This document shows, piece by piece, positions 6,643-26,180 of a stretch of 64,000 bases of DNA. The notes under the pieces were generated by a model. The model was not told the DNA's origin. It worked only from the letters and a program-made list of their open reading frames with translations, and searched no databases. A program made the position numbers and the translations under genes. The stretch is from Hymenobacter sp. DG01. Lineage in GTDB: Bacteria; Bacteroidota; Bacteroidia; Cytophagales; Hymenobacteraceae. Location: contig NZ_CP040936.1 of the NCBI RefSeq assembly GCF_006352025.1, positions 2,294,001 through 2,358,000 on the forward strand. The letters run 5' to 3'. How positions within the stretch are numbered: the first letter of the stretch is position 1; every line of letters begins with the position of its first letter.

Positions 6643-6659
6643 GAAGGAGCGTTTCCTGC

Positions 6660-8144
6660 TTAGTTTTCTTTTTCTATCTCTCCGGCCACTACCTGCCCCG
6701 ATATCAGAGAAGGCGGTACGCCAGGACCGGGCACCGTAAGCTGACCCGTAAAATACAGATTACTAACTTTTTTGCTTTTAAGCGCTGGCTTCAGGATGGC
6801 CGTTTGGCGCAACGTATTCGCCAGGCCGTAGGCGTTGCCCTTATAGCTATTGTAATCCTGCACGAAATCCTGGTGGGCGTAGCTGCGCTTATACACCACC
6901 GCGTCGCGGATGCTGGTGCCGCAGTGGCGCTCCAGCCGGTCCATAATCAGGTGGTAGTAATGCTCCCGGGTTTCCTCCGGGTCAGTTAGGTTGGGGGCCA
7001 CCGGAATCAGCAGGAACAGGTTTTCGCAGCCTTCGGGCGCTACCGAGGGGTCGGTCTGCGATGGGGCCGACACGTAAAACAGGGGGCGGGTGGGCCACTT
7101 CGGGTCCTCGTAAATTTCCTCGGCGTGCAGGCTGAAATCCTCGTCGAAGAACAGGTTGTGGTGCCGCAGCTGGGGTAGGCGCTTGTTTACGCCCACGTAA
7201 AACAGCAACGACGATGGCGCCATCGTACGCGCATCCCAGTATTTCTCGTCGTAGTGGCGCCACTCGGGGGCCAGCAGGTGCTGCTCGGCATGGTGGTAGT
7301 CGGCGCCGGCCACTACCACATCGGCGGCCCGGAAGCCGGCAGCGGTTTGCACGCCCGTGGCGCGGCCGCGCTCCACTACAATTTCCTGCACGGGTGCGTT
7401 GTATTCAATCTGCACGCCGCGCTCCTGGGCCAGCTGCACCATGCCTTCCACAATTTTGTGCATGCCGCCCATGGGGTACCAGGTGCCCAGGGCCAGGTCG
7501 GCGTAGTTCATGAGGGAGTACAGGGCCGGGGTATTATCGGAGGTAGCCCCCAGGAACAGCACCGGAAACTCCACCAACTCCAGCAGACGCGGGTCCTTGA
7601 AAAACTTGCGCACGTGCTTGTGCATGCTCTGCAGCAGATCCAGCCGCACAGCATTTACTACCAGGCGCGGGTCCATGAACTCCAGCAGGGAACGGCCGGG
7701 CATGTGCACGAATTTGCCAATGCCTACCTCGTACTTATAGGCAGCCTGCCGCAGAAACTCATCGAGGCGGGCGGCGCTGCCGGGCTCGTAGTGTTCAAAT
7801 AGTGCCCGCAGCTCCTCCATACGGGCCGGAATATCTACCGTCTCCTGATTTTTGAACACGACCTGGTACGAGGGGTCCAGGCGCACCAGCTCGTAGTAAT
7901 CCGAAACCTTCTTGCCGAAACGAGCGAAATACTGCTCGAAAATATCAGGCATCCAGTACCAGCTCGGCCCCATATCGAAGGTAAAGCCCTCGGCCCGGAA
8001 CACGCGGGCCCGGCCGCCCGGGCCTTCGTTTTTCTCCAGAATGGTGACGCGGTAGCCGCGCTGAGCCAGGGAAGTAGCGGCGGCCAGCCCGGCAAAGCCC
8101 GCCCCGATAACCAGAACGTGTTTAGAAGTAGAGGCGGTAGTCAA
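6660..8144 (-). CDS. crtI: Phytoene desaturase CrtI
   Basis: FAD-dependent desaturase converting phytoene to lycopene or neurosporene. The N-terminal dinucleotide-binding fold reads VLVIGAGFAGLAAA followed by the acidic ribose-binding ILEKNEGPGGRA. The C-terminal carotenoid-desaturase signature, with FTGQLTVPGPGVPPSLISG, closes the FAD site. The length of 494 aa is standard. The frame opens with TTG at 8144 (MTTASTSKH); no in-frame ATG exists upstream of the GxGxxG motif. The sigma-factor gene lies upstream with a terminator between them, so crtI probably has its own promoter in the 232-bp gap. Confidence 0.95.
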   Translation of the reverse strand: MTTASTSKHVLVIGAGFAGLAAATSLAQRGYRVTILEKNEGPGGRARVFRAEGFTFDMGPSWYWMPDIFEQYFARFGKKVSDYYELVRLDPSYQVVFKNQETVDIPARMEELRALFEHYEPGSAARLDEFLRQAAYKYEVGIGKFVHMPGRSLLEFMDPRLVVNAVRLDLLQSMHKHVRKFFKDPRLLELVEFPVLFLGATSDNTPALYSLMNYADLALGTWYPMGGMHKIVEGMVQLAQERGVQIEYNAPVQEIVVERGRATGVQTAAGFRAADVVVAGADYHHAEQHLLAPEWRHYDEKYWDARTMAPSSLLFYVGVNKRLPQLRHHNLFFDEDFSLHAEEIYEDPKWPTRPLFYVSAPSQTDPSVAPEGCENLFLLIPVAPNLTDPEETREHYYHLIMDRLERHCGTSIRDAVVYKRSYAHQDFVQDYNSYKGNAYGLANTLRQTAILKPALKSKKVSNLYFTGQLTVPGPGVPPSLISGQVVAGEIEKEN

Positions 8145-18702: not shown

Positions 18703-19176
18703 TTATTCTTCAAGCTCTACCAAGCCTTCATAGAATTCGGTGAAACTGGGAGCTAAGAAATACACTCCCTTACCGTACTGACGAGGCTGGCCCATTTCTT
18801 TCCGCTTTGGTGGCTTGTATGATTCGTGCGCGATGTAGTAAACGCTGCCATAATCTTCCGCTCCTACACTCAGCACAAACAAATCGCCTCCTCCATCCGA
18901 GGCAAAGAAGACAAAGTCGTTATGGAGTTCGCCAGCCGTTAGCCTGCGCGCATCATTCAGCGTCATATTTCCACTACCAATGGAAAAAAACTTATTGACC
19001 GTGAACTGCTCCTCGTTCTGTACGAAAGTGTCGCGTTTCGGGAATCCACCATTGAAGCGTAGCAGGTGTGCTTTGTAGTCCTCGGGAAGCGTTTTACCAA
19101 TCCTGGTTTCAAAAGCCTCTATGTCTGCCAGCAGGGCTGGTTCTGCGGTCCGGGCAAAAGCCTGTTCTGTTTCCAT
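18703..19176 (-). CDS. SMI1/KNR4 (SUKH) family immunity protein
   Basis: 157 aa. The SUKH fold is seen in IEAFETRIGKTLPEDYKAHL followed by the LLRFNGGFP turn, then DFVFFASDGGGDLFVLS and FLAPSFTEFYEGL at the end. SUKH proteins are the commonest immunity proteins for polymorphic nuclease toxins. It starts only 4 bp after the stop of the TssD-WHH nuclease gene and must be co-transcribed with it, so it is very likely the cognate antidote acting in the cytoplasm. Base composition is lower in GC than the flanking housekeeping genes. Confidence 0.92.
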   Translation of the reverse strand: METEQAFARTAEPALLADIEAFETRIGKTLPEDYKAHLLRFNGGFPKRDTFVQNEEQFTVNKFFSIGSGNMTLNDARRLTAGELHNDFVFFASDGGGDLFVLSVGAEDYGSVYYIAHESYKPPKRKEMGQPRQYGKGVYFLAPSFTEFYEGLVELEE

Positions 19177-19180
19177 CTGC

Positions 19181-20320
19181 TTATCTGTAGAGTTTTTGAC
19201 CTACGTGTTTGTTCAACTGGTCACAAGAGCCATAGTGCACGAAGGTTGCCTGGTGCGCCTTTTCCTCAACCAGCTCCATAGTGCAGGTACCGTAGGGGGG
19301 CGGGTTAGGGTTGACCCGAAAATCGTCCCGGTGGTGCCACGTATAGCCATCAGGTGGCTGGTGACTCTTCAGGCCCTGTGCCTTAACTACATCTGTCAGC
19401 CCCGCAGCTTCGTTTGCCAGACGAAAATCTGTTGCCCGATTGCCGGCCATTTCGATTACCACAACGTTCTTCTGATTGCCCGTTACGGCATACATATGGG
19501 ACGTCCCGGCGTACGTGGGTTGCCCATTTAAGGTCAATGGGATGTGGGGGTAACCGTTCTTGGTGCCTGTGATGTTGTACGACTTCTGCGCATCATATAT
19601 CGCCACCATTTTTCCTGCCTTATCAACACGGTATGTAAGTGGGTCTCCATCCACATGAAACTCCGTCTGCCTATACTGCTTAAGGAATTTCTTACTCTTT
19701 GCTTCCTCAGAATCGTCCCAGCGGCCTTTGATAAGGTCTTTCCACTCTTGCGCAGAAAGATGCACTTGCTTATGGTCCGGGGACGGCTGCGGCTGCGGGG
19801 CTGGCAGATGCGGGGGAATATCCCTGGGGTCAACGGGTACCGCTTGTGGTACCCGACTAGCTCGCACTGCTTGTGGAACTGAGGTAGCTGAAGGCTCAGG
19901 GGCAGCATATGCGCGGGGTGCTGGGGCTATCCAAGTATCTCCATTGCCGGAACCAACTCCGCAATCCTCAGGCGAGATGGTAAAGCGCACACGGAAGGAC
20001 GCCCCACCAGTGGTTCCGGTAGAATTAAAGTATTCTGTATAGCCTGTGCAATAGGCGTGCGTGAACCACAGATGTTTAAGTACCGAACCGTCCGGTTTCA
20101 AGAAGACAACCTTACCGCTAAGCGTATTCCAGTTAGAGACGGACCACGCTACCAGGTTACTTATGTCGTCCACTGCATGCAGCTCTACATGGATAGGCCC
20201 TTTCCGAACCCTGCTTCGCGGTCTGCCTCTATGGTCTGTATACTGGCGAAAGGTGTAGTAGCATAACGCTACTATAAATTTTTTACCCCCTACCTCTAGA
20301 AATGCTGAAAATGAAGCCAT
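19181..20320 (-). CDS. tssD: TssD (Hcp-like T6SS tube protein) fused to a WHH-family HNH nuclease toxin
   Basis: 379 aa in three parts. Residues 1-120 match the Bacteroidota T6SS tube protein TssD: FSAFLEVGGKKFIVALCYYT, the HRGRPRS loop, VELHAVDDISNLVAWSV, EYFNSTG and RVRFTISPEDC. Residues about 130-185 are a Pro/Ala-rich linker. Residues about 186-379 are a toxin: GNRATDFRLANEAAGL leads into Y-T-W328-H329-H330, then MELV with H356 and H362, the metal-binding pattern of the HNH/Endo VII WHH nucleases. The frame runs 38 codons further upstream, but the ATG at 20320 gives the exact TssD N-terminus (MASFSAFLE). It is read as an extended Hcp effector delivered with the tube; no other T6SS gene is in the window. 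Confidence 0.9.
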   Translation of the reverse strand: MASFSAFLEVGGKKFIVALCYYTFRQYTDHRGRPRSRVRKGPIHVELHAVDDISNLVAWSVSNWNTLSGKVVFLKPDGSVLKHLWFTHAYCTGYTEYFNSTGTTGGASFRVRFTISPEDCGVGSGNGDTWIAPAPRAYAAPEPSATSVPQAVRASRVPQAVPVDPRDIPPHLPAPQPQPSPDHKQVHLSAQEWKDLIKGRWDDSEEAKSKKFLKQYRQTEFHVDGDPLTYRVDKAGKMVAIYDAQKSYNITGTKNGYPHIPLTLNGQPTYAGTSHMYAVTGNQKNVVVIEMAGNRATDFRLANEAAGLTDVVKAQGLKSHQPPDGYTWHHRDDFRVNPNPPPYGTCTMELVEEKAHQATFVHYGSCDQLNKHVGQKLYR

Positions 20321-20439
20321 TGCATCATAATGTTTCAACCAATCAGGTATTGAGCCTGAACAAGTGGCACTAGGTATATTAATAGAATAGCCGGCAATAT
20401 AGGGGTGGCCGGGTAAAAACAGACAGTGTGCCAACGTGA

Positions 20440-20698
20440 GCTGAGTTGAAAGTCAGGCTCAGCTTGGTGCGGGGAGCGGCAGGCAAGGACAGCGTGGCGC
20501 CGGTTGAGATTGAAACAAATACCGAGGTACTAGGCGACCTCCAGCCGAACCTTCTTCGAGACTGATAAGCGTACTGGCGTGCGGCCGCAGTTCGGTTTTA
20601 AGCGTGCTCCAACCGGCCTAAACCTATATTTCGTCGGGACTGAGCAGTGGAAGGCCGGACTTATCACTGTTGGTTTGTACTCGACTACCTCATTTTGA
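20440..20698 (+). pseudogene. Degraded coding fragment, family not recognised
   Basis: Two coding-like plus-strand stretches lie in different frames. The first (VRLSLVRGAAGKDSVAPVEI) ends at a TGA at 20563-20565. The second (TFFETDKRTGVRPQFGFK, then LNLYFVGTEQWKAGLITV) ends at a TGA at 20696-20698. A single frameshift near 20545 would join them. Neither has a start codon. I read this as the 3' end of a decayed gene upstream of the effector. Confidence 0.35.
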
Positions 20699-20724
20699 CC
20701 AATGTTGCTATAAACTGCCACTTC

Positions 20725-21408
20725 CTACCCCCTCGGCGCGTCCGGAGCCGGCAGGTCCGGGAATCTGTTCCGGAGTAGCTCCTCGAAGGTTTGGGAACGG
20801 TCGTTCAGGAAGATGTCGTGGTGGAAGGTGTCGAGTTTGAGGAGCAGGTAGAGGAGCTGCTTGCGCTCGGCGGGTTCCAGCGTGCCGGCCACGATGTGCG
20901 CTACCTGCCCCATGCGGCCAAACAGCCGGAACAGCACCTGGCGGCCGGCGTCGGTGATGGTGAGCAGCTTGCTGCGGCGGTCGGTTTCGTGGGCTTGCTC
21001 TACCAGTAGTCCTTGGCGGAGCAGGCGCTTGAGAATCTCGGTGCCGGTAGGCTTTTCGTGGATGTTGCGCACGATTACCTCCGTTTTGGTTAGCGGCTGC
21101 TGCCCGTACACCGTCACCAGATAGCTGAAGTCATCATAGGAAAGCAGCGGGGAGCCTTCCAGGGCCAGGCGCATGTAGCCGCGGGCGTAGCGGTACATAA
21201 ACGTGATGAGCTTGCTGATGCGTGACTCATCAAACTCGGCCGGGTGGGCTTGCGTGCGCGTCACGGGGGTAGCATCGGGCGGGGCGGCGGTGCGCGTGTG
21301 CAGCCAGGTAGCAAACGCCGCCATATCGTCGGGGCCTTGCCCGGTAGGATGCTGCGCCTCAAAAGCCTCGGCCAGATCTACCAGCTGGCGAAAAAAGGCG
21401 TAGTTCAT
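20725..21408 (-). CDS. MarR-family transcriptional regulator
   Basis: 227 aa, longer than a minimal MarR because of an extended N-terminus. The winged helix spans about 85-180: LLSYDDFSYLVTVYGQQPLTKTEV, the recognition region EKPTGTEILKRLLRQGLL and the wing ETDRRSKLLTITDAG. C-terminal helices form the dimer interface. It is divergent from a TonB-dependent receptor gene 113 bp away, with an inverted repeat in between, so it probably regulates that gene and itself. The ligand is unknown. Confidence 0.88.
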   Translation of the reverse strand: MNYAFFRQLVDLAEAFEAQHPTGQGPDDMAAFATWLHTRTAAPPDATPVTRTQAHPAEFDESRISKLITFMYRYARGYMRLALEGSPLLSYDDFSYLVTVYGQQPLTKTEVIVRNIHEKPTGTEILKRLLRQGLLVEQAHETDRRSKLLTITDAGRQVLFRLFGRMGQVAHIVAGTLEPAERKQLLYLLLKLDTFHHDIFLNDRSQTFEELLRNRFPDLPAPDAPRG

Positions 21409-21480
21409 GCGGCAAAGATAACTGGGAGCAAATAAGGATGATAAAATCTACTTTGCCATGAAAACATACTAACTCGATAT

Positions 21481-21518
21481 AAGTTGATGCGTTTACACAC
21501 ATTTCAACCCATCAACTT
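21481..21518. promoter_or_regulatory. Inverted repeat between marR-like gene and TonB receptor (possible operator)
   Basis: AAGTTGATG (21481-21489) and CATCAACTT (21510-21518) are perfect inverted copies 20 bp apart, ending 3 bp before the receptor ATG. The spacing is about two helical turns, as expected for a dimeric regulator. It could also form an mRNA hairpin over the start region. Confidence 0.4.
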
Positions 21519-21521
21519 AGG

Positions 21522-23962
21522 ATGAGAATCTTCTACCTCCTGCTTTTTCTTGTGAGTGCTACCAGCGCCTGGGCGCAATCGACGGGCGTTCTGACGGGCA
21601 CCGTGCGCGACCGGAAAACCCAGGAGGTGGTACCGGGCGTGACGGTGGTGCTGAAAGGTACCACACTGGGCACCTCTTCGGATGAAGAAGGACGCTACCG
21701 CCTGACGGATATTCCGACGGGCAGCTACAACGTGCGAGCGTCGTTTGTGGGCTACGAGCCCCTGCTGCGGGCCAACGTGGTGATTACCTCCGGCAACGCT
21801 TCCATCATCAACCTGGAGCTGAACAGCAGCAGCCAGCAGCTCAGCGAGGTGCAGGTGGTCGGGAACCGCGCCATTCGGGTAGCCACGGCCGAAACGCCGC
21901 TGTCAGTGCAGCGCATCAATACCGAGGAAATCAAGAGCAACCCCGGCGGCAACTTCGATATATCGAAGGTGATTCAGACGTTGCCGGGGGTAGGCGGGGG
22001 CGGCACGGGCGGCACCGCCGGCTTCCGCAACGACATTATCATTCGGGGCGGAGCACCCAATGAAAACGTGTACTACCTCGATGGCATTGAGGTACCCGTG
22101 ATTAACCACTTCCAGACCCAGGGCTCCTCGGGCGGCCCCACGGGCATTCTGAATGTGTCGTTCATTGAGGATGTGACCCTGAGCTCCTCGGCGTTTGAGG
22201 CCCGCTACGACAACGTGCTGTCGTCGGTGCTGCAGTTCCGGCAGCGCGACGGCAACCCCGACCGGGTGCAGGGCAACGTGCGCCTCAGCGGCACCGAGGT
22301 AGCAGCCACGCTGGAAGGCCCCCTGGCGAAGAACACCACCTTCCTGGCCTCGGCCCGCCGCTCCTACCTCCAGTTTCTGTTCAAAGCCATCGACCTGCCC
22401 ATCCGGCCCAACTACTGGGATTTCCAGTACAAAGTCACCACCAAACTCTCGCCCAAAACCACCCTTACCTCCCTGGGCCTGGGCGCCATCGACCACTTTG
22501 AGCTGGCCGTGCCCCGCAAAACCTCGCCCGATAAGGAGTACACCCTGCGCTCTACTCCTACCATCGACCAGTGGAACTACACAGTAGGGCTGGCTTTGCG
22601 CCAGCTGCTGGAAAACGGCTACCTCAACGTGGCCCTCAGCCGCACCCAGCTCAATAACAAGCTCGACCAGTTCGAGGACCGCACCACCACCGAGGAATCC
22701 CGGCGGGTGCTGCTGACCCGCTCCGGCGAAACCGAGAATAAGTTGCGCATTGATGTGAATAAGGCTTTGGGGCGCTGGCAGTACGCCTACGGGCTGGTGG
22801 GCCAGTTTGTGCAGTACGACAGCCGCTTTTTCAACCGCATCCGCAACGAAGTGCGCGACGCCCAGGGCAACCTGGTGTCGCCGCGGGTGGACGTGAACTT
22901 CCGGACCGATATTGACTTCGCGCGCTTCGGGGCATTTGGGCAGGTGACGCGCACCCTGCTCCCCGACGACCGGCTGACCCTGTCGGCGGGTTTGCGCACC
23001 GATGGCAACTCGTTCACGGAAGACGGGGGCAACCTGCTGCGCACTCTGTCGCCGCGCGTGTCGGCCTCCTACGCCCTGGCTTCGCGCTGGAACCTGAACG
23101 GCTCCGTGGGCGCTACTACAAGATTCCGCCTTCTACCATCCTGGGCTTTCGGGATGAGAACGGCAACCCGGTCAACAAAGGCAGCCGCTACATCCGCTCC
23201 GACCACTACGTGGCCGGCCTAGAGTTCCTGCCTACGGCCGCTACCCGCTTCACCCTCGAAGGCTTCTACAAGAAGTACAGCCACTACCCCGTTTCGGTGC
23301 GCGACGGTATTTCGCTGGCCAACCTGGGCGGCGACTTCACGGCCCTGGGCAACGAGGCGGTAAGCAGCACGGGCGAGGGCCGGGCCTTCGGGGCCGAGCT
23401 GTTTTTTCAGCAAAAGCTCACCAAGAAAATCTTTGCGGTGGCTTCGCTCACGGCCTTCCGCTCGGAGTTTTCGGGTGCGAACGGGCAGTACCGCCCCTCG
23501 GCCTGGGATTCGCGCTTTCTGGCCTCGGCCCTGCTGGGGCGCAAGTTCACGAAGGGCTGGGAAATGGGCTTTAAGTACCGCTTCGCCGGCGGCTCGCCCT
23601 ACACCCCCTTCGACCTGGAAGCCTCCCAGGCCAGCTACCTGGCCGTGGGCCGGGGCGTGCTGGACTACTCGCGTCTGAATACCATCCGTTTGGGCAGCTT
23701 TCAGCAGTTCGATTTCCGCCTCGACAAGAAGTTCAACTGGCGCCGCACCAGCATCGACCTGTTCCTGGATGTGCAAAACGCCTTCCTGCTGAAAAACCCC
23801 AGCCTGCCCAGCTACACCTTCCAGCGCACCGCCGACAATGCCGGCTTCATTTCCACCGACGGCCAGCCCATCCGCCCCGATGGCTCCAACGCCGTGCCTA
23901 CCCTGCTGCAGGACGACGACCCCACGGTAACGCCCACCATCGGGTTTATTCTGGAGTTTTAG
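21522..23962 (+). pseudogene. TonB-dependent receptor (CarboxypepD_reg plus plug plus barrel), frameshifted
   Basis: A signal peptide (ends AWA) leads into a CarboxypepD_reg domain (GVLTGTVRDRKTQEVVPGVT, TSSDEEGRYRLTD), a plug domain (TLPGVGGGGTGGTAGFRNDI, IIRGGAPNENVYYLDG) and a 22-strand-type barrel. Near 23108-23112 the reading breaks: frame one continues as GATTRFRL to a stop at 23222, while the true continuation (GRYYKIPPSTILGFRDENGN) is in the next frame and runs to 23962, ending PTIGFILEF. One missing base explains it. Restored length is about 813 aa. It is a real inactivating mutation or a sequencing error. It would import a ligand across the outer membrane; the substrate is unknown. 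Confidence 0.85.
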
Positions 23963-24226: not shown

Positions 24227-25318
24227 ATGCCTACCGCCCATCCCTGCACCAGCCCACTCAAATTTGTCGTGGGCATCGACATTGCGAAAGATACTTTCGT
24301 CGCCTGTTTTGGGCAAATTGATGCCCGCCAGCACCTGCGCTTCGGCAAACAGACATCATTCGACAACACGCTGACTGGCTTTGCTGCTTTGCTTAGTTGG
24401 ACTGAAAAACAAGCGGTGCTGCCGGCTCCCATTTGGTTTGTAGTAGAGGCCACAGGCGTCTACTACGAAGAACTGGCCTATTTTCTAAGTGATAAGGCGC
24501 AAGCACTCAGCGTGCTCCTCCCCAACAAGGCGAAGCATTTTGCACAGAGCACCGAGCAAAAGAGCAAAACGGACCAACTTGATGCGCGCTTACTCTGCCG
24601 GCTCGGGTTGGAGCGTGCCTTGCCTGCCTGGCAACCGCCCTCACCAGCCTTACGGCAATTACGGGCGCTGGCCCGCGAGCGGCAAAGCTTAACCGGACAT
24701 GGGGCACGCCTCAAGGTGAAAATCCATGCCTATCAGCACAGCTATCAACCCGATGCCCGTTCCCTGTCCCGCTTGGCCACCCAACAAACACTTATTCAGC
24801 AGCAGTTGCTCGCCGTTGACCAGGACCTCGCCGCCTTGCTGGAAGCGGAACCCGAACTTGGTCGCAAGTTGAGACAGCTGACGAGTGTGCTTGGCATCGG
24901 TTTGACCACCGCTATCGTGGTCGTCGCCGAAACCAGCGGCTTCGTGCTCGTGGATAACGAGCGGCAACTGGCTTCCTACGCCGGGTTGGATGTAGTGCAA
25001 CGCCAAAGTGGGCTGTTTGCCGGAGCCACGCGCATCTCGCGCCGAGGGAACGTACGCTTGCGTACGGCCCTTTATCTACCGGCTATCAGCAGCTTGCGTT
25101 ACAACCCGCAGCAGATGGCCTTCTATACCCGACTGCGGGCGAGACACCCCAACGGCAAGCCTGGTGTGATTGCGGTCATGCGCAAACTCCTCCTGCTTTG
25201 CTACTCTCTGTGGAAAAATGACCGGATGTACGACCCGCAGTACCACCCCGCAGTTAACGAATTAGCAGCAGCGCTCGAATCCGTTCACCCCGAAACCAAC
25301 GAGAAAGCACCAGTTTAG
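24227..25318 (+). CDS. IS110-family transposase (DEDD recombinase)
   Basis: 363 aa. The N-terminal DEDD/RuvC-like domain begins FVVGIDIAKDTFVACFG, with the second acidic position in VEATGVYY and the rest in KSKTDQLDARLLCRL. The C-terminal Transposase_20 domain (about 220-310) carries LTSVLGIGLTTA, LASYAGLDVVQRQSG and the conserved ISRRGNVRLRTALY with its catalytic Ser. Full length and intact, so probably active. Its stop overlaps the stop of the convergent GDCCVxC gene. Confidence 0.95.
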   Translation: MPTAHPCTSPLKFVVGIDIAKDTFVACFGQIDARQHLRFGKQTSFDNTLTGFAALLSWTEKQAVLPAPIWFVVEATGVYYEELAYFLSDKAQALSVLLPNKAKHFAQSTEQKSKTDQLDARLLCRLGLERALPAWQPPSPALRQLRALARERQSLTGHGARLKVKIHAYQHSYQPDARSLSRLATQQTLIQQQLLAVDQDLAALLEAEPELGRKLRQLTSVLGIGLTTAIVVVAETSGFVLVDNERQLASYAGLDVVQRQSGLFAGATRISRRGNVRLRTALYLPAISSLRYNPQQMAFYTRLRARHPNGKPGVIAVMRKLLLLCYSLWKNDRMYDPQYHPAVNELAAALESVHPETNEKAPV

Positions 25319-25548
25319 CCGCAGCAACTTCCTGAACCTTGTTCCTGAATGGGCGGACAGGGCACCGAGCCATAAGAGCAGTACACGCAGCAATCACCGG
25401 CCAGCGGTTTCAAGACCGTGTGGCAACTCGTGCATTCGTAGAAATATTGACAAGCGTCGGTCGGCATTTGCTCCGCTTGCGCGTGGCCGCATACCGGGCA
25501 CGTTAGGACGGAAGTAAGCAACGGGGCCTTTGGTTCGAGCGTAAGCAT
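25315..25548 (-). CDS. GDCCVxC domain-containing small protein
   Basis: 77-aa Cys-rich protein. A zinc-ribbon-like start (LTCPVCGHAQAEQMPTDACQ) leads to CTSCHTVLKP, the signature GDCCVYCSYG, then VPCPPIQ and a C-terminal CCG. The family is found beside mercury-transport genes; some members carry selenocysteine in the CC motif, but here all positions are Cys. It is 14 bp after merTP and probably the last gene of the metal operon. A metal-carrier or thiol-redox role is inferred. Confidence 0.85.
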   Translation of the reverse strand: MLTLEPKAPLLTSVLTCPVCGHAQAEQMPTDACQYFYECTSCHTVLKPLAGDCCVYCSYGSVPCPPIQEQGSGSCCG

Positions 25549-25562
25549 GGAGCAGGGGGAGG

Positions 25563-26180
25563 TTAGTTCGTGGCCAGCACTTTGTAGCCAGTGCCGTTAA
25601 TAGCTTGGGCGACCTGCGCGGCGGGGCTTTTGGCCGCATCAAAGCGGACTTGCGCTGTGCCCTGGTCGTAGGAAACGGTCACGGCCTGCACGCCCGGCAG
25701 CTGCTGCACCGCGTGCTCGACGTGTTTCGCGCAGGCGTCGCAGGTCATGCCCCCGATGCGGTAGTTCGCCGTTTGCCAGACCGGTCCGGCTGCACTTGCG
25801 GCCACTGGAACGGGTGCGACTGGGGTGGGGTACAACTTTGCCCCGTAGTAAGGGAAGGCCAGCAGCAGCGCCGCCAGTACCGTTACCACACCTAGGAAGA
25901 CCTTGGACTGCATAAAGGTGGGTTTTGTGTCCACTGTGCAGCCGCAGGCATCGGCGGCCGGCGCTGGTTTGAGTTGCTGATACCAGGCAAAGCCCAGTGC
26001 ACCCACGGTAAGGGCTACTGAGTAGGGCCGCAGGGGTTCGAGCCAGGCAAAGGCCGAGGCCACGCCGCCCAGGCCCCCCAGGACCGCCAGCAGCGGCGTG
26101 ATGCAGCACAGCGACGCGGCCAGCGCCGCCACCAAGCCGGCCCCGAGCAGGGGTTTGTTGGAAGAAGGGGAAGTATTCAT
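25563..26180 (-). CDS. merTP: MerTP-type mercuric transport protein (MerT-HMA fusion)
   Basis: 205 aa. MerT-like membrane helices include the first-helix vicinal pair C25-C26 (ASLCCITPLL) and a CGC pair after the second helix (ADACGCTVD). A third helix (about 92-112) precedes a C-terminal heavy-metal-associated domain with MTCDACAKHVEHAV. The protein would take up Hg2+ across the inner membrane and pass it between Cys pairs. It overlaps the ArsR gene by 4 bp. No merA mercuric reductase is present in the window. Confidence 0.9.
   Translation of the reverse strand: MNTSPSSNKPLLGAGLVAALAASLCCITPLLAVLGGLGGVASAFAWLEPLRPYSVALTVGALGFAWYQQLKPAPAADACGCTVDTKPTFMQSKVFLGVVTVLAALLLAFPYYGAKLYPTPVAPVPVAASAAGPVWQTANYRIGGMTCDACAKHVEHAVQQLPGVQAVTVSYDQGTAQVRFDAAKSPAAQVAQAINGTGYKVLATN

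What the first reader, a model, noticed from the sequence alone, without database searches (positions are those of the whole stretch)
18703..20320. T6SS tube protein TssD fused to a WHH nuclease, with SUKH immunity gene
The sequence shows a complete Bacteroidota TssD domain (1-120), a Pro-rich linker and a C-terminal toxin with the WHH-x(n)-H-x(5)-H pattern of HNH/Endo VII WHH nucleases. A SUKH immunity gene starts 4 bp later. Extended Hcp effectors are known in Proteobacteria; a TssD-toxin fusion in the subtype iii system of Bacteroidota is much less described. Delivery inside or as part of the tube is inference.
Basis: partly seen in the sequence, partly recalled or inferred. Interest (0 to 1): 0.88.

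Follow-up and report, generated by a model that had tools for sequence, protein, structure and literature searches.

The report
Secretion-tube protein carrying a DNA-cutting toxin
A bacterium of the genus Hymenobacter carries a gene that joins a building block of its toxin-injection tube to a likely nuclease toxin, with the probable antidote gene beside it; this type of fusion is already known, but Hymenobacter species turn out to hold varied and scattered sets of them.

Summary
Window 19181-20320 (minus strand) encodes 379 aa: a Bacteroidota TssD domain (Pfam, residues 3-124, 86.3 bits, cut-off 25.8), a proline-rich linker and a WHH nuclease domain (322-371, 42.6 bits, cut-off 25.1). A SUKH gene (73.4 bits) starts 4 bp downstream. 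The Hymenobacter genome holds a T6SS(iii) cluster 1.2 Mb away with its own short TssD.

Best reading: a specialised ("evolved") TssD effector that enters the tube beside ordinary TssD; SUKH protects the producer. Delivery and toxicity were not tested.

The kind is known: evolved Hcp in Bacteroidales (PMC4714493), T6SS-dependent killing by an Hcp-Ntox15 fusion (PMC10470768), a T6SS WHH toxin bound by SUKH immunity (PMC12247911).

What I did not find described is the scale in Hymenobacter: 59 extended TssDs in 18 genomes of the family, in 24 tail clusters; 16 of 27 close TssD pairs carry different toxins; H. terrenus has 41 TssD matches. In sampled genomes outside the family, 1 of 76 matches was extended. 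SUKH relatives follow 9 of 9 WHH fusions and 0 of 49 others. No structure prediction ran.

The parts
19181..20320 (-). tssD-WHH gene, 379 aa plus stop
   Evidence: ORF; Pfam TssD and WHH; full-length relative L056 61% identical in an alignment
19949..20314 (-). TssD (Hcp) domain, residues 3-124
   Evidence: PF17642 88.9 bits in the genome search, 86.3 bits in hmmscan; matches solved TssDs 6bdc, 7yw0, 9qwl at E 1e-11 to 6e-11
19913..19936 (-). Junction motif TWIAPAPR, residues 129-136, at the place where the short TssD of the same genome ends (NKWV)
   Evidence: Alignment; a pattern I wrote after seeing the tails fits 20 of 59 extended TssDs
19769..19930 (-). Proline-rich linker, 15 prolines in residues 131-184
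19184..19765 (-). C-terminal toxin region, residues 186-379 (limit set by eye); Pfam WHH part at 19208-19357
   Evidence: PF14414 42.6 bits; relatives on other carriers
18703..19176 (-). SUKH (SMI1_KNR4) probable immunity gene, 157 aa, 4 bp downstream
   Evidence: PF09346 73.4 bits; relatives follow 9 of 9 WHH fusions and 0 of 49 other extended TssDs
20402..20693 (.). Decayed insertion-sequence remnant just upstream (two end pieces, 20402-20619 and 20627-20693)
   Evidence: 75% and 82% identity to the two ends of an element in L133, also in L134 and L136; that element's two genes match HTH_Tnp_1 and rve (L133 and L134); the name IS3 family is recalled

Best explanation
This is a specialised ("evolved") TssD effector with its immunity gene. 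The TssD domain would take one place in a tube ring, beside ordinary TssD subunits made by the T6SS(iii) cluster elsewhere in the genome, and the toxin would ride in the tube lumen. When the sheath contracts the fusion would enter a rival bacterium, where the WHH domain would cut DNA or RNA. The SUKH protein would bind the toxin and protect the producer and its kin. Shown here: the domains, their order, the downstream gene, the apparatus genes, the pairing of toxin and immunity types across related loci. Inferred: ring entry, delivery, nuclease activity, neutralisation.
For: TssD and WHH are both over Pfam cut-offs. The TssD domain is 38.7% identical over 119 aa to the genome's short TssD. Same genome: TssN, TssE (gp25), TssF, an AAA ATPase, TssC, TssD, VgrG. 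TssC is in 23 of 24 TssD-positive genomes tested and 0 of 6 TssD-negative ones. All 59 extended proteins match TssD at E up to 0.001, and part of them match known toxin families, WHH 9, Colicin-DNase 7. Downstream proteins: SUKH 9, PoNi 4, Tdi1 2 of 53 scanned. Ntox15 and Tdi1 lie together in L074 and L079. SUKH relatives follow 9 of 9 WHH fusions, 0 of 49 others. Among 27 TssD pairs at 75% identity or more, 16 carry different tail clusters. Precedents: PMC10470768 (passages), PMC12247911 (passages), PMC4714493 (passages). PMC13323088 argues that a ring can hold only one extended Hcp, with five ordinary ones (passage). PDB entries 9vnd/9vne hold two different B. fragilis Hcps.
Against: No structure, secretion or toxicity result. 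The gene is 1.2 Mb from the cluster. TssB is below its Pfam cut-off (22.1 against 24). TssR was found in 0 of 6 Hymenobacter genomes, against 5 of 10 other Bacteroidota, and PMC10781749 says the genus lacks any complete T6SS(iii) (passage). G094 keeps an open tssD-WHH frame with a SUKH gene although no TssC was found in its 40-contig assembly. Several of the 59 extended genes are truncated, e.g. L061 (202 aa), L079, L080, L082. Carrier domains are mostly distant from the tube TssD.
Confidence: 0.82

Rival explanations
1. The TssD domain is a loading tag rather than a ring subunit: it binds inside or at the end of a ring of ordinary TssD, or at the base of VgrG, and the toxin is delivered as cargo.
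For: Most carrier TssDs are far from the tube TssD in a weakly resolved tree, and only 3 columns are nearly invariant among the 59. A toxin region of about 195 residues is large for a lumen (inference); a large chimera bound to Hcp blocked firing in P. aeruginosa (PMC8262886, passages).
Against: The whole TssD domain is kept, with the conserved Q, GRP and V positions and the C-terminal W, and it matches solved tube proteins, best along residues 3-131.
Confidence: 0.12
2. The pair is an undelivered leftover, or acts as a toxin-antitoxin or abortive-infection pair inside the cell.
For: Orphan position; open pair in G094, where no TssC was found. PADLOC gives a weak match of the SUKH protein to PDC-M40A, 25.8 bits.
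Against: The frame is intact here. The sister genome G555 has other extended TssDs while keeping the T6SS structural genes at 92% identity. TssD-positive genomes almost always have TssC (23 of 24).
Confidence: 0.06

Closest known systems
Hcp-Ntox15 (Tde1/Tdi1) of Bacteroidales GA2 T6SS(iii), PMC10470768 (passages)
   Same: TssD/Hcp fused to a C-terminal nuclease with an adjacent immunity gene in a T6SS(iii) organism; killing depends on the fusion and on TssB/TssC
   Different: Toxin is Ntox15, not WHH; encoded inside the T6SS locus, while this gene is 1.2 Mb from the cluster. Two H. terrenus fusions (L074, and the truncated L079) do carry Ntox15 with Tdi1 downstream
Evolved Hcp proteins of gut Bacteroidales, PMC4714493 (passages)
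   Same: Hcp domain first, variable C-terminal toxin
   Different: Typically one per GA2 locus there; here up to 21 open frames of 290 aa or more in one genome, and 46 of 59 on another contig or over 30 kb from TssC
E2-I2, WHH toxin and SUKH immunity of GA1 T6SS, PMC12247911 (passages)
   Same: WHH toxin domain toxic in E. coli, rescued and bound by SUKH immunity; T6SS-linked, Bacteroidota
   Different: That text has no mention of Hcp or TssD (0 hits); dual SUKH domain there, one here
Hcp-ET proteins of Enterobacteriaceae (Ma et al. 2017: paper not held; seen only as a reference and in PMC8262886 passages)
   Same: Hcp with an extended toxin domain
   Different: Enterobacterial Hcp; that these use T6SS(i) is recalled
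Polymorphic toxin systems, PMC3482391 (passages)
   Same: Tox-WHH listed with Imm-SUKH; short T6SS toxins fused to N-terminal HCP1 domains mentioned
   Different: The word Hymenobacter does not occur in the part held (0 hits); no TssD carrier family in the passages I saw

Membership tests
Specialised (evolved) Hcp/TssD effector | N-terminal Hcp/TssD domain | tested here: met
   PF17642, 86.3 bits, residues 3-124
Specialised (evolved) Hcp/TssD effector | C-terminal toxin extension (over 60 aa in PMC8262886) | tested here: met
   255 residues after the TssD match, WHH 42.6 bits
Specialised (evolved) Hcp/TssD effector | A T6SS in the same genome | tested here: met
   TssC 753.9 bits, TssN, TssE, TssF, VgrG, short TssD
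Specialised (evolved) Hcp/TssD effector | Enters tube rings and is delivered by the T6SS | not testable with these tools
Tox-WHH nuclease | WHH motif and two further histidines | tested here: met
   W328 H329 H330 H356 H362 invariant in 25 sequences; Pfam WHH over cut-off
Tox-WHH nuclease | HNH/EndoVII fold | not tested
   Structure prediction did not run
Tox-WHH nuclease | Nuclease activity | not testable with these tools
   Experiment needed
SUKH immunity protein | SUKH/SMI1_KNR4 domain next to the toxin | tested here: met
   73.4 bits, 4 bp gap, relatives follow 9 of 9 WHH fusions
SUKH immunity protein | Neutralises the cognate toxin | not testable with these tools
   Shown for E2-I2 in PMC12247911, not here
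Polymorphic toxin system | Shared N-terminal carrier with exchangeable C-terminal toxins | tested here: met
   16 of 27 close TssD pairs have different tail clusters; WHH needs 8 changes on the carrier tree of 59
T6SS(iii) apparatus | Bacteroidota TssC, TssD, TssN with TssE, TssF, VgrG, ClpV-like ATPase | tested here: met
   TssB is under its Pfam cut-off, TssK and TssG are assigned by position and recall only, the ATPase is named TssH by position
T6SS(iii) apparatus | TssR of the membrane complex | tested here: not met
   0 of 6 Hymenobacter, 5 of 10 other Bacteroidota; 0 of 24, which had no positive control
T6SS(iii) apparatus | TssO of the membrane complex | tested here: inconclusive
   Pfam TssO 0 of 6 Hymenobacter, 9 of 10 others; but a 300-aa protein of the cluster weakly matches G429 (E 4.8e-4) at the place of its TssO
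T6SS(iii) apparatus | TssP and TssQ | not tested
   No family accession was searched

The most novel reading that the evidence does not exclude
In Hymenobacter the T6SS tube itself has become an open-ended toxin platform. A lineage of TssD carrier proteins, mostly separate from the tube-building TssD, serves as an interchangeable adaptor for a genome-scattered cassette arsenal (21 open frames of 290 aa or more in H. terrenus). Each carrier would join a mixed ring with ordinary TssD, in a T6SS(iii) whose membrane complex is reduced or strongly diverged. The turnover of these cassettes between sister species would set who kills whom.
Probability: 0.45. Interest if true: 0.7.

Novelty: new member of a known kind. 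Interest (0 to 1): 0.5.

Why it matters
A TssD-toxin fusion is a simple way to load a T6SS tube, and whether such fusions sit in mixed rings is an open point (PMC13323088 infers it). This genome shows one short TssD and one fusion, so the ring question can be asked with two genes. The genus was described as lacking a complete T6SS(iii) (PMC10781749). A diversifying arsenal of TssD fusions with matched immunity genes argues that the machine works, and makes its missing or diverged membrane parts worth finding.

Tried and rejected
A new TssD-toxin architecture: rejected after passages of PMC4714493 and PMC10470768. PMC11699363 looked relevant by word counts, but its passages use P. aeruginosa Hcp2 as an ADP-ribosylation substrate. 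Hymenobacter T6SS as lacking TssO: weakened. Empty-site test: in the sister genome G555 the right flank (window 20724-23620, 94.5%) and the left flank (to 18133, 88.8%) lie about 50 kb apart and the fusion is not there, so the site is rearranged and gives no clean empty site. In one search the tree group that I named WHH is really tail cluster 0 (10 other proteins); the corrected count is. The tree has few columns and many weak forks.

Rows dropped: (121 matches by my sum of its table; only 26 of 49 candidates scored in G139) I fetched 60 regions, 58 for long open frames and 2 for short ones. A few frames of 188 to 233 aa that looked like short TssDs were not fetched. Of 61 proteins of 190 aa or more I dropped a duplicate (L027 equals L058) and a 16.7-bit match in L056, leaving 59. 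Some of the 59 are truncated, and some starts are set too early (L074) or too late. Of 58 downstream ORFs, 53 went to Pfam; L036, L060, one of two of L061, L062 and L082 were left out for long gaps or size. Tail clusters of one include truncated tails.

Full report
OBSERVATION. The minus strand of the window at 19181-20320 encodes a 379-residue protein, and 4 bp downstream a 157-residue protein at 18703-19176. Pfam finds TssD at residues 3-124 (86.3 bits, cut-off 25.8) and WHH at 322-371 (42.6 bits, cut-off 25.1) in the first, and SMI1_KNR4 (73.4 bits, cut-off 25.4) in the second. The linker holds 15 prolines in 54 residues; W328 H329 H330 H356 H362 form the motif. Sequence search of the PDB matches Bacteroidota tube proteins 6bdc, 7yw0 and 9qwl (E 1e-11 to 6e-11) and B. 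fragilis Hcp3 and Hcp2 in 9vnd (E 2.6e-4 and 3.9e-4), all to the TssD part; the toxin part has no significant match there.

GENOME AND APPARATUS. The genome (5.04 Mb, 2 contigs) has two TssD matches: this one and a short one of 149.3 bits at C1:1088845-1089237. Around the short one lie TssN, a gp25-like TssE, TssF, a double-AAA ATPase, a weak TssB (22.1 bits, cut-off 24), TssC (753.9 bits), a Tle1-like lipase, a DUF4280 protein and VgrG. TssK and TssG are my assignments by position and recall; Pfam gave no such match. The window gene is 1.23 Mb from TssC. The genus is Hymenobacter: contigs named H. artigasi and H. terrenus have the same lengths as contigs of G094 and G139, which are listed as same genus.

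THE FUSION IS ONE OF MANY. In 150 genomes of the family, 24 have TssD, with 121 matches by my sum; in G139 only 26 of 49 candidates were scored. From 60 fetched regions I took 59 TssD proteins of 190 residues or more, in 18 genomes, 18 of them from G139. All 59 match Pfam TssD at E up to 0.001, at least one under the cut-off. The commonest toxin matches are WHH 9, Colicin-DNase 7, Peptidase_M91 3, TNT 3, Ntox15 2, Tox-MPTase4 2, Mbeg1-like 2; many tails match nothing. Tail clustering gives 24 clusters, 14 of them single, some of these truncated. In a class-wide sample of 396 genomes, 29 have TssD with 78 matches; leaving out this genome's two, 1 of 76 matches lies in an open frame of 200 residues or more (G447, same order). 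That one is a TssD fused to Tox-MPTase4. H. terrenus (G139) has 41 matches at E up to 0.001, 39 of them over the cut-off, when all 49 candidates are scored; by my count 21 lie in open frames of 290 residues or more without a stop in the match. Genus-wide, 37 of 120 genomes have TssD. Extended TssDs are thus rare elsewhere in this sample and common here, though GA2 Bacteroidales are known to have them (PMC4714493).

MODULARITY. Among 27 pairs of carrier TssD domains with at least 75% identity, 16 carry different tail clusters; L085 and L087 (94%) and L034 and L035 (96%) differ in tail. Conversely WHH tails sit on carriers as little as 17% alike, and WHH needs 8 changes on the tree of 59 carriers. 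The window's nearest carriers are L057 (50%, another tail) and L056 (46%, WHH). WHH relatives also sit on proteins without TssD in Bacillales and others. Several carriers share a junction motif of the form F/W-V-x-P-A-x-R right after the TssD end: 20 of 59 fit a pattern I wrote after seeing them, another pattern fits 7, and 32 fit neither. In this protein the motif starts where the short TssD ends in W-V.

IMMUNITY. Of 59 fusions, 58 have a downstream same-strand ORF by my rule, 51 of them with a gap of 50 bp or less. Relatives of the window SUKH protein (phmmer, all at E below 1e-9) occur behind 9 of 9 WHH fusions and 0 of 49 others. The chance of such a split is about 1e-10 for independent proteins, which related loci are not. 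Among 53 downstream proteins scanned, ankyrin repeats 6, PoNi 4, Tdi1 2 and Imm30 1 appear besides SUKH 9. Direct check of four loci: Ntox15 with Tdi1 in L074 and L079 (L079 holds only part of Ntox15), and PoNi behind L070 and L072, whose tails have no Pfam match of their own.

POSITION AND TURNOVER. Of 59 fusions, 12 lie within 30 kb of TssC, 14 lie further on the same contig, 32 on another contig (draft assemblies, so distance unknown), 1 in a genome without TssC. The sister genome G555 keeps the T6SS structural stretch in order at 92% identity but differs between TssD and VgrG. It lacks the WHH fusion at this site. It has three TssD matches: the short one and two fusions with PoNi genes downstream. 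A decayed insertion sequence lies directly upstream of the window gene.

MECHANISM. The best reading is a specialised tube effector: one fusion subunit per ring with ordinary TssD subunits, the toxin carried inside. Steps shown: domains, apparatus genes, immunity pairing, modular exchange. Steps inferred: ring entry, delivery, nuclease activity, neutralisation. Support from print: Hcp-Ntox15 kills in a T6SS-dependent way (PMC10470768), WHH toxin E2 is toxic in E. coli and bound by SUKH I2 with nanomolar affinity (PMC12247911), and a ring is argued to fit only one extended Hcp (PMC13323088). Of all papers cited I saw search listings and passages, no whole text.

AGAINST. TssR was found in 0 of 6 Hymenobacter genomes and in 5 of 10 other Bacteroidota. 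Pfam TssO gave 0 of 6 against 9 of 10. But a 300-residue cluster protein matches in 19 of 19 same-genus genomes that have the T6SS (TssC in 18, by DNA synteny in G555) and in 0 of 4 without TssC. It also matches in 2 of 5 TssC-positive genomes of other genera of the family, and in 3 of 10 more distant ones. One of these, G429 at E 4.8e-4, lies on its TssO. TssO may therefore only be diverged. G094 has an open pair without a detected TssC. No structure prediction could be run.

NOVELTY. The locus is a new member of a known kind. Searches for prior reports. Among the listed rows the only paper that I saw to treat Hymenobacter and T6SS(iii) together is PMC10781749, in one sentence. I did not find the Hymenobacter arsenal described, in a library that lacks most subscription papers.

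Noticed in passing
L004:7922-8740 and 6650-7938 (minus strand), near VgrG of the genome's T6SS cluster: A 272-aa protein with an SHGCVH motif, as in L,D-transpeptidases (recalled), next to two similar lipoprotein-like genes of about 200 aa: perhaps a cell-wall effector with two immunity proteins. Pfam gave no match to any of the three.
   Followed up: partly
L004:430-4525 (minus strand): Tle1-like lipase, DUF2931, DUF4280 (PAAR-like by recall) and a 306-aa unknown in a row next to VgrG: another effector module. Sister genome G555 shows no DNA match over most of this stretch.
   Followed up: partly
L003:11612-12511: A 300-aa protein with a membrane segment and coiled coil (by eye), between the TssK-like and TssE genes, tracks the T6SS in Hymenobacter and may be a diverged TssO.
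   Followed up: partly
L137 (G447:C3:161500-166500): The one extended TssD found outside the family: a 383-aa TssD fused to Tox-MPTase4 (84.7 bits), with partial copies beside it. The same genome has no Pfam TssO or TssR match.
   Followed up: partly
window 21522-23962: A TonB-receptor-like gene (Plug domain) is split over two reading frames here, while G555 has one frame of at least 700 aa, running off the fetched stretch, at the matching place.
   Followed up: partly
window 24227-26180: An IS110-type transposase gene beside a MerT plus heavy-metal-associated domain protein.
   Followed up: partly
L135 (G139:C97:26000-31500): H. terrenus holds two stretches like the WHH toxin and three like the SUKH gene within 5.5 kb, as if immunity genes were stockpiled.
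   Followed up: no
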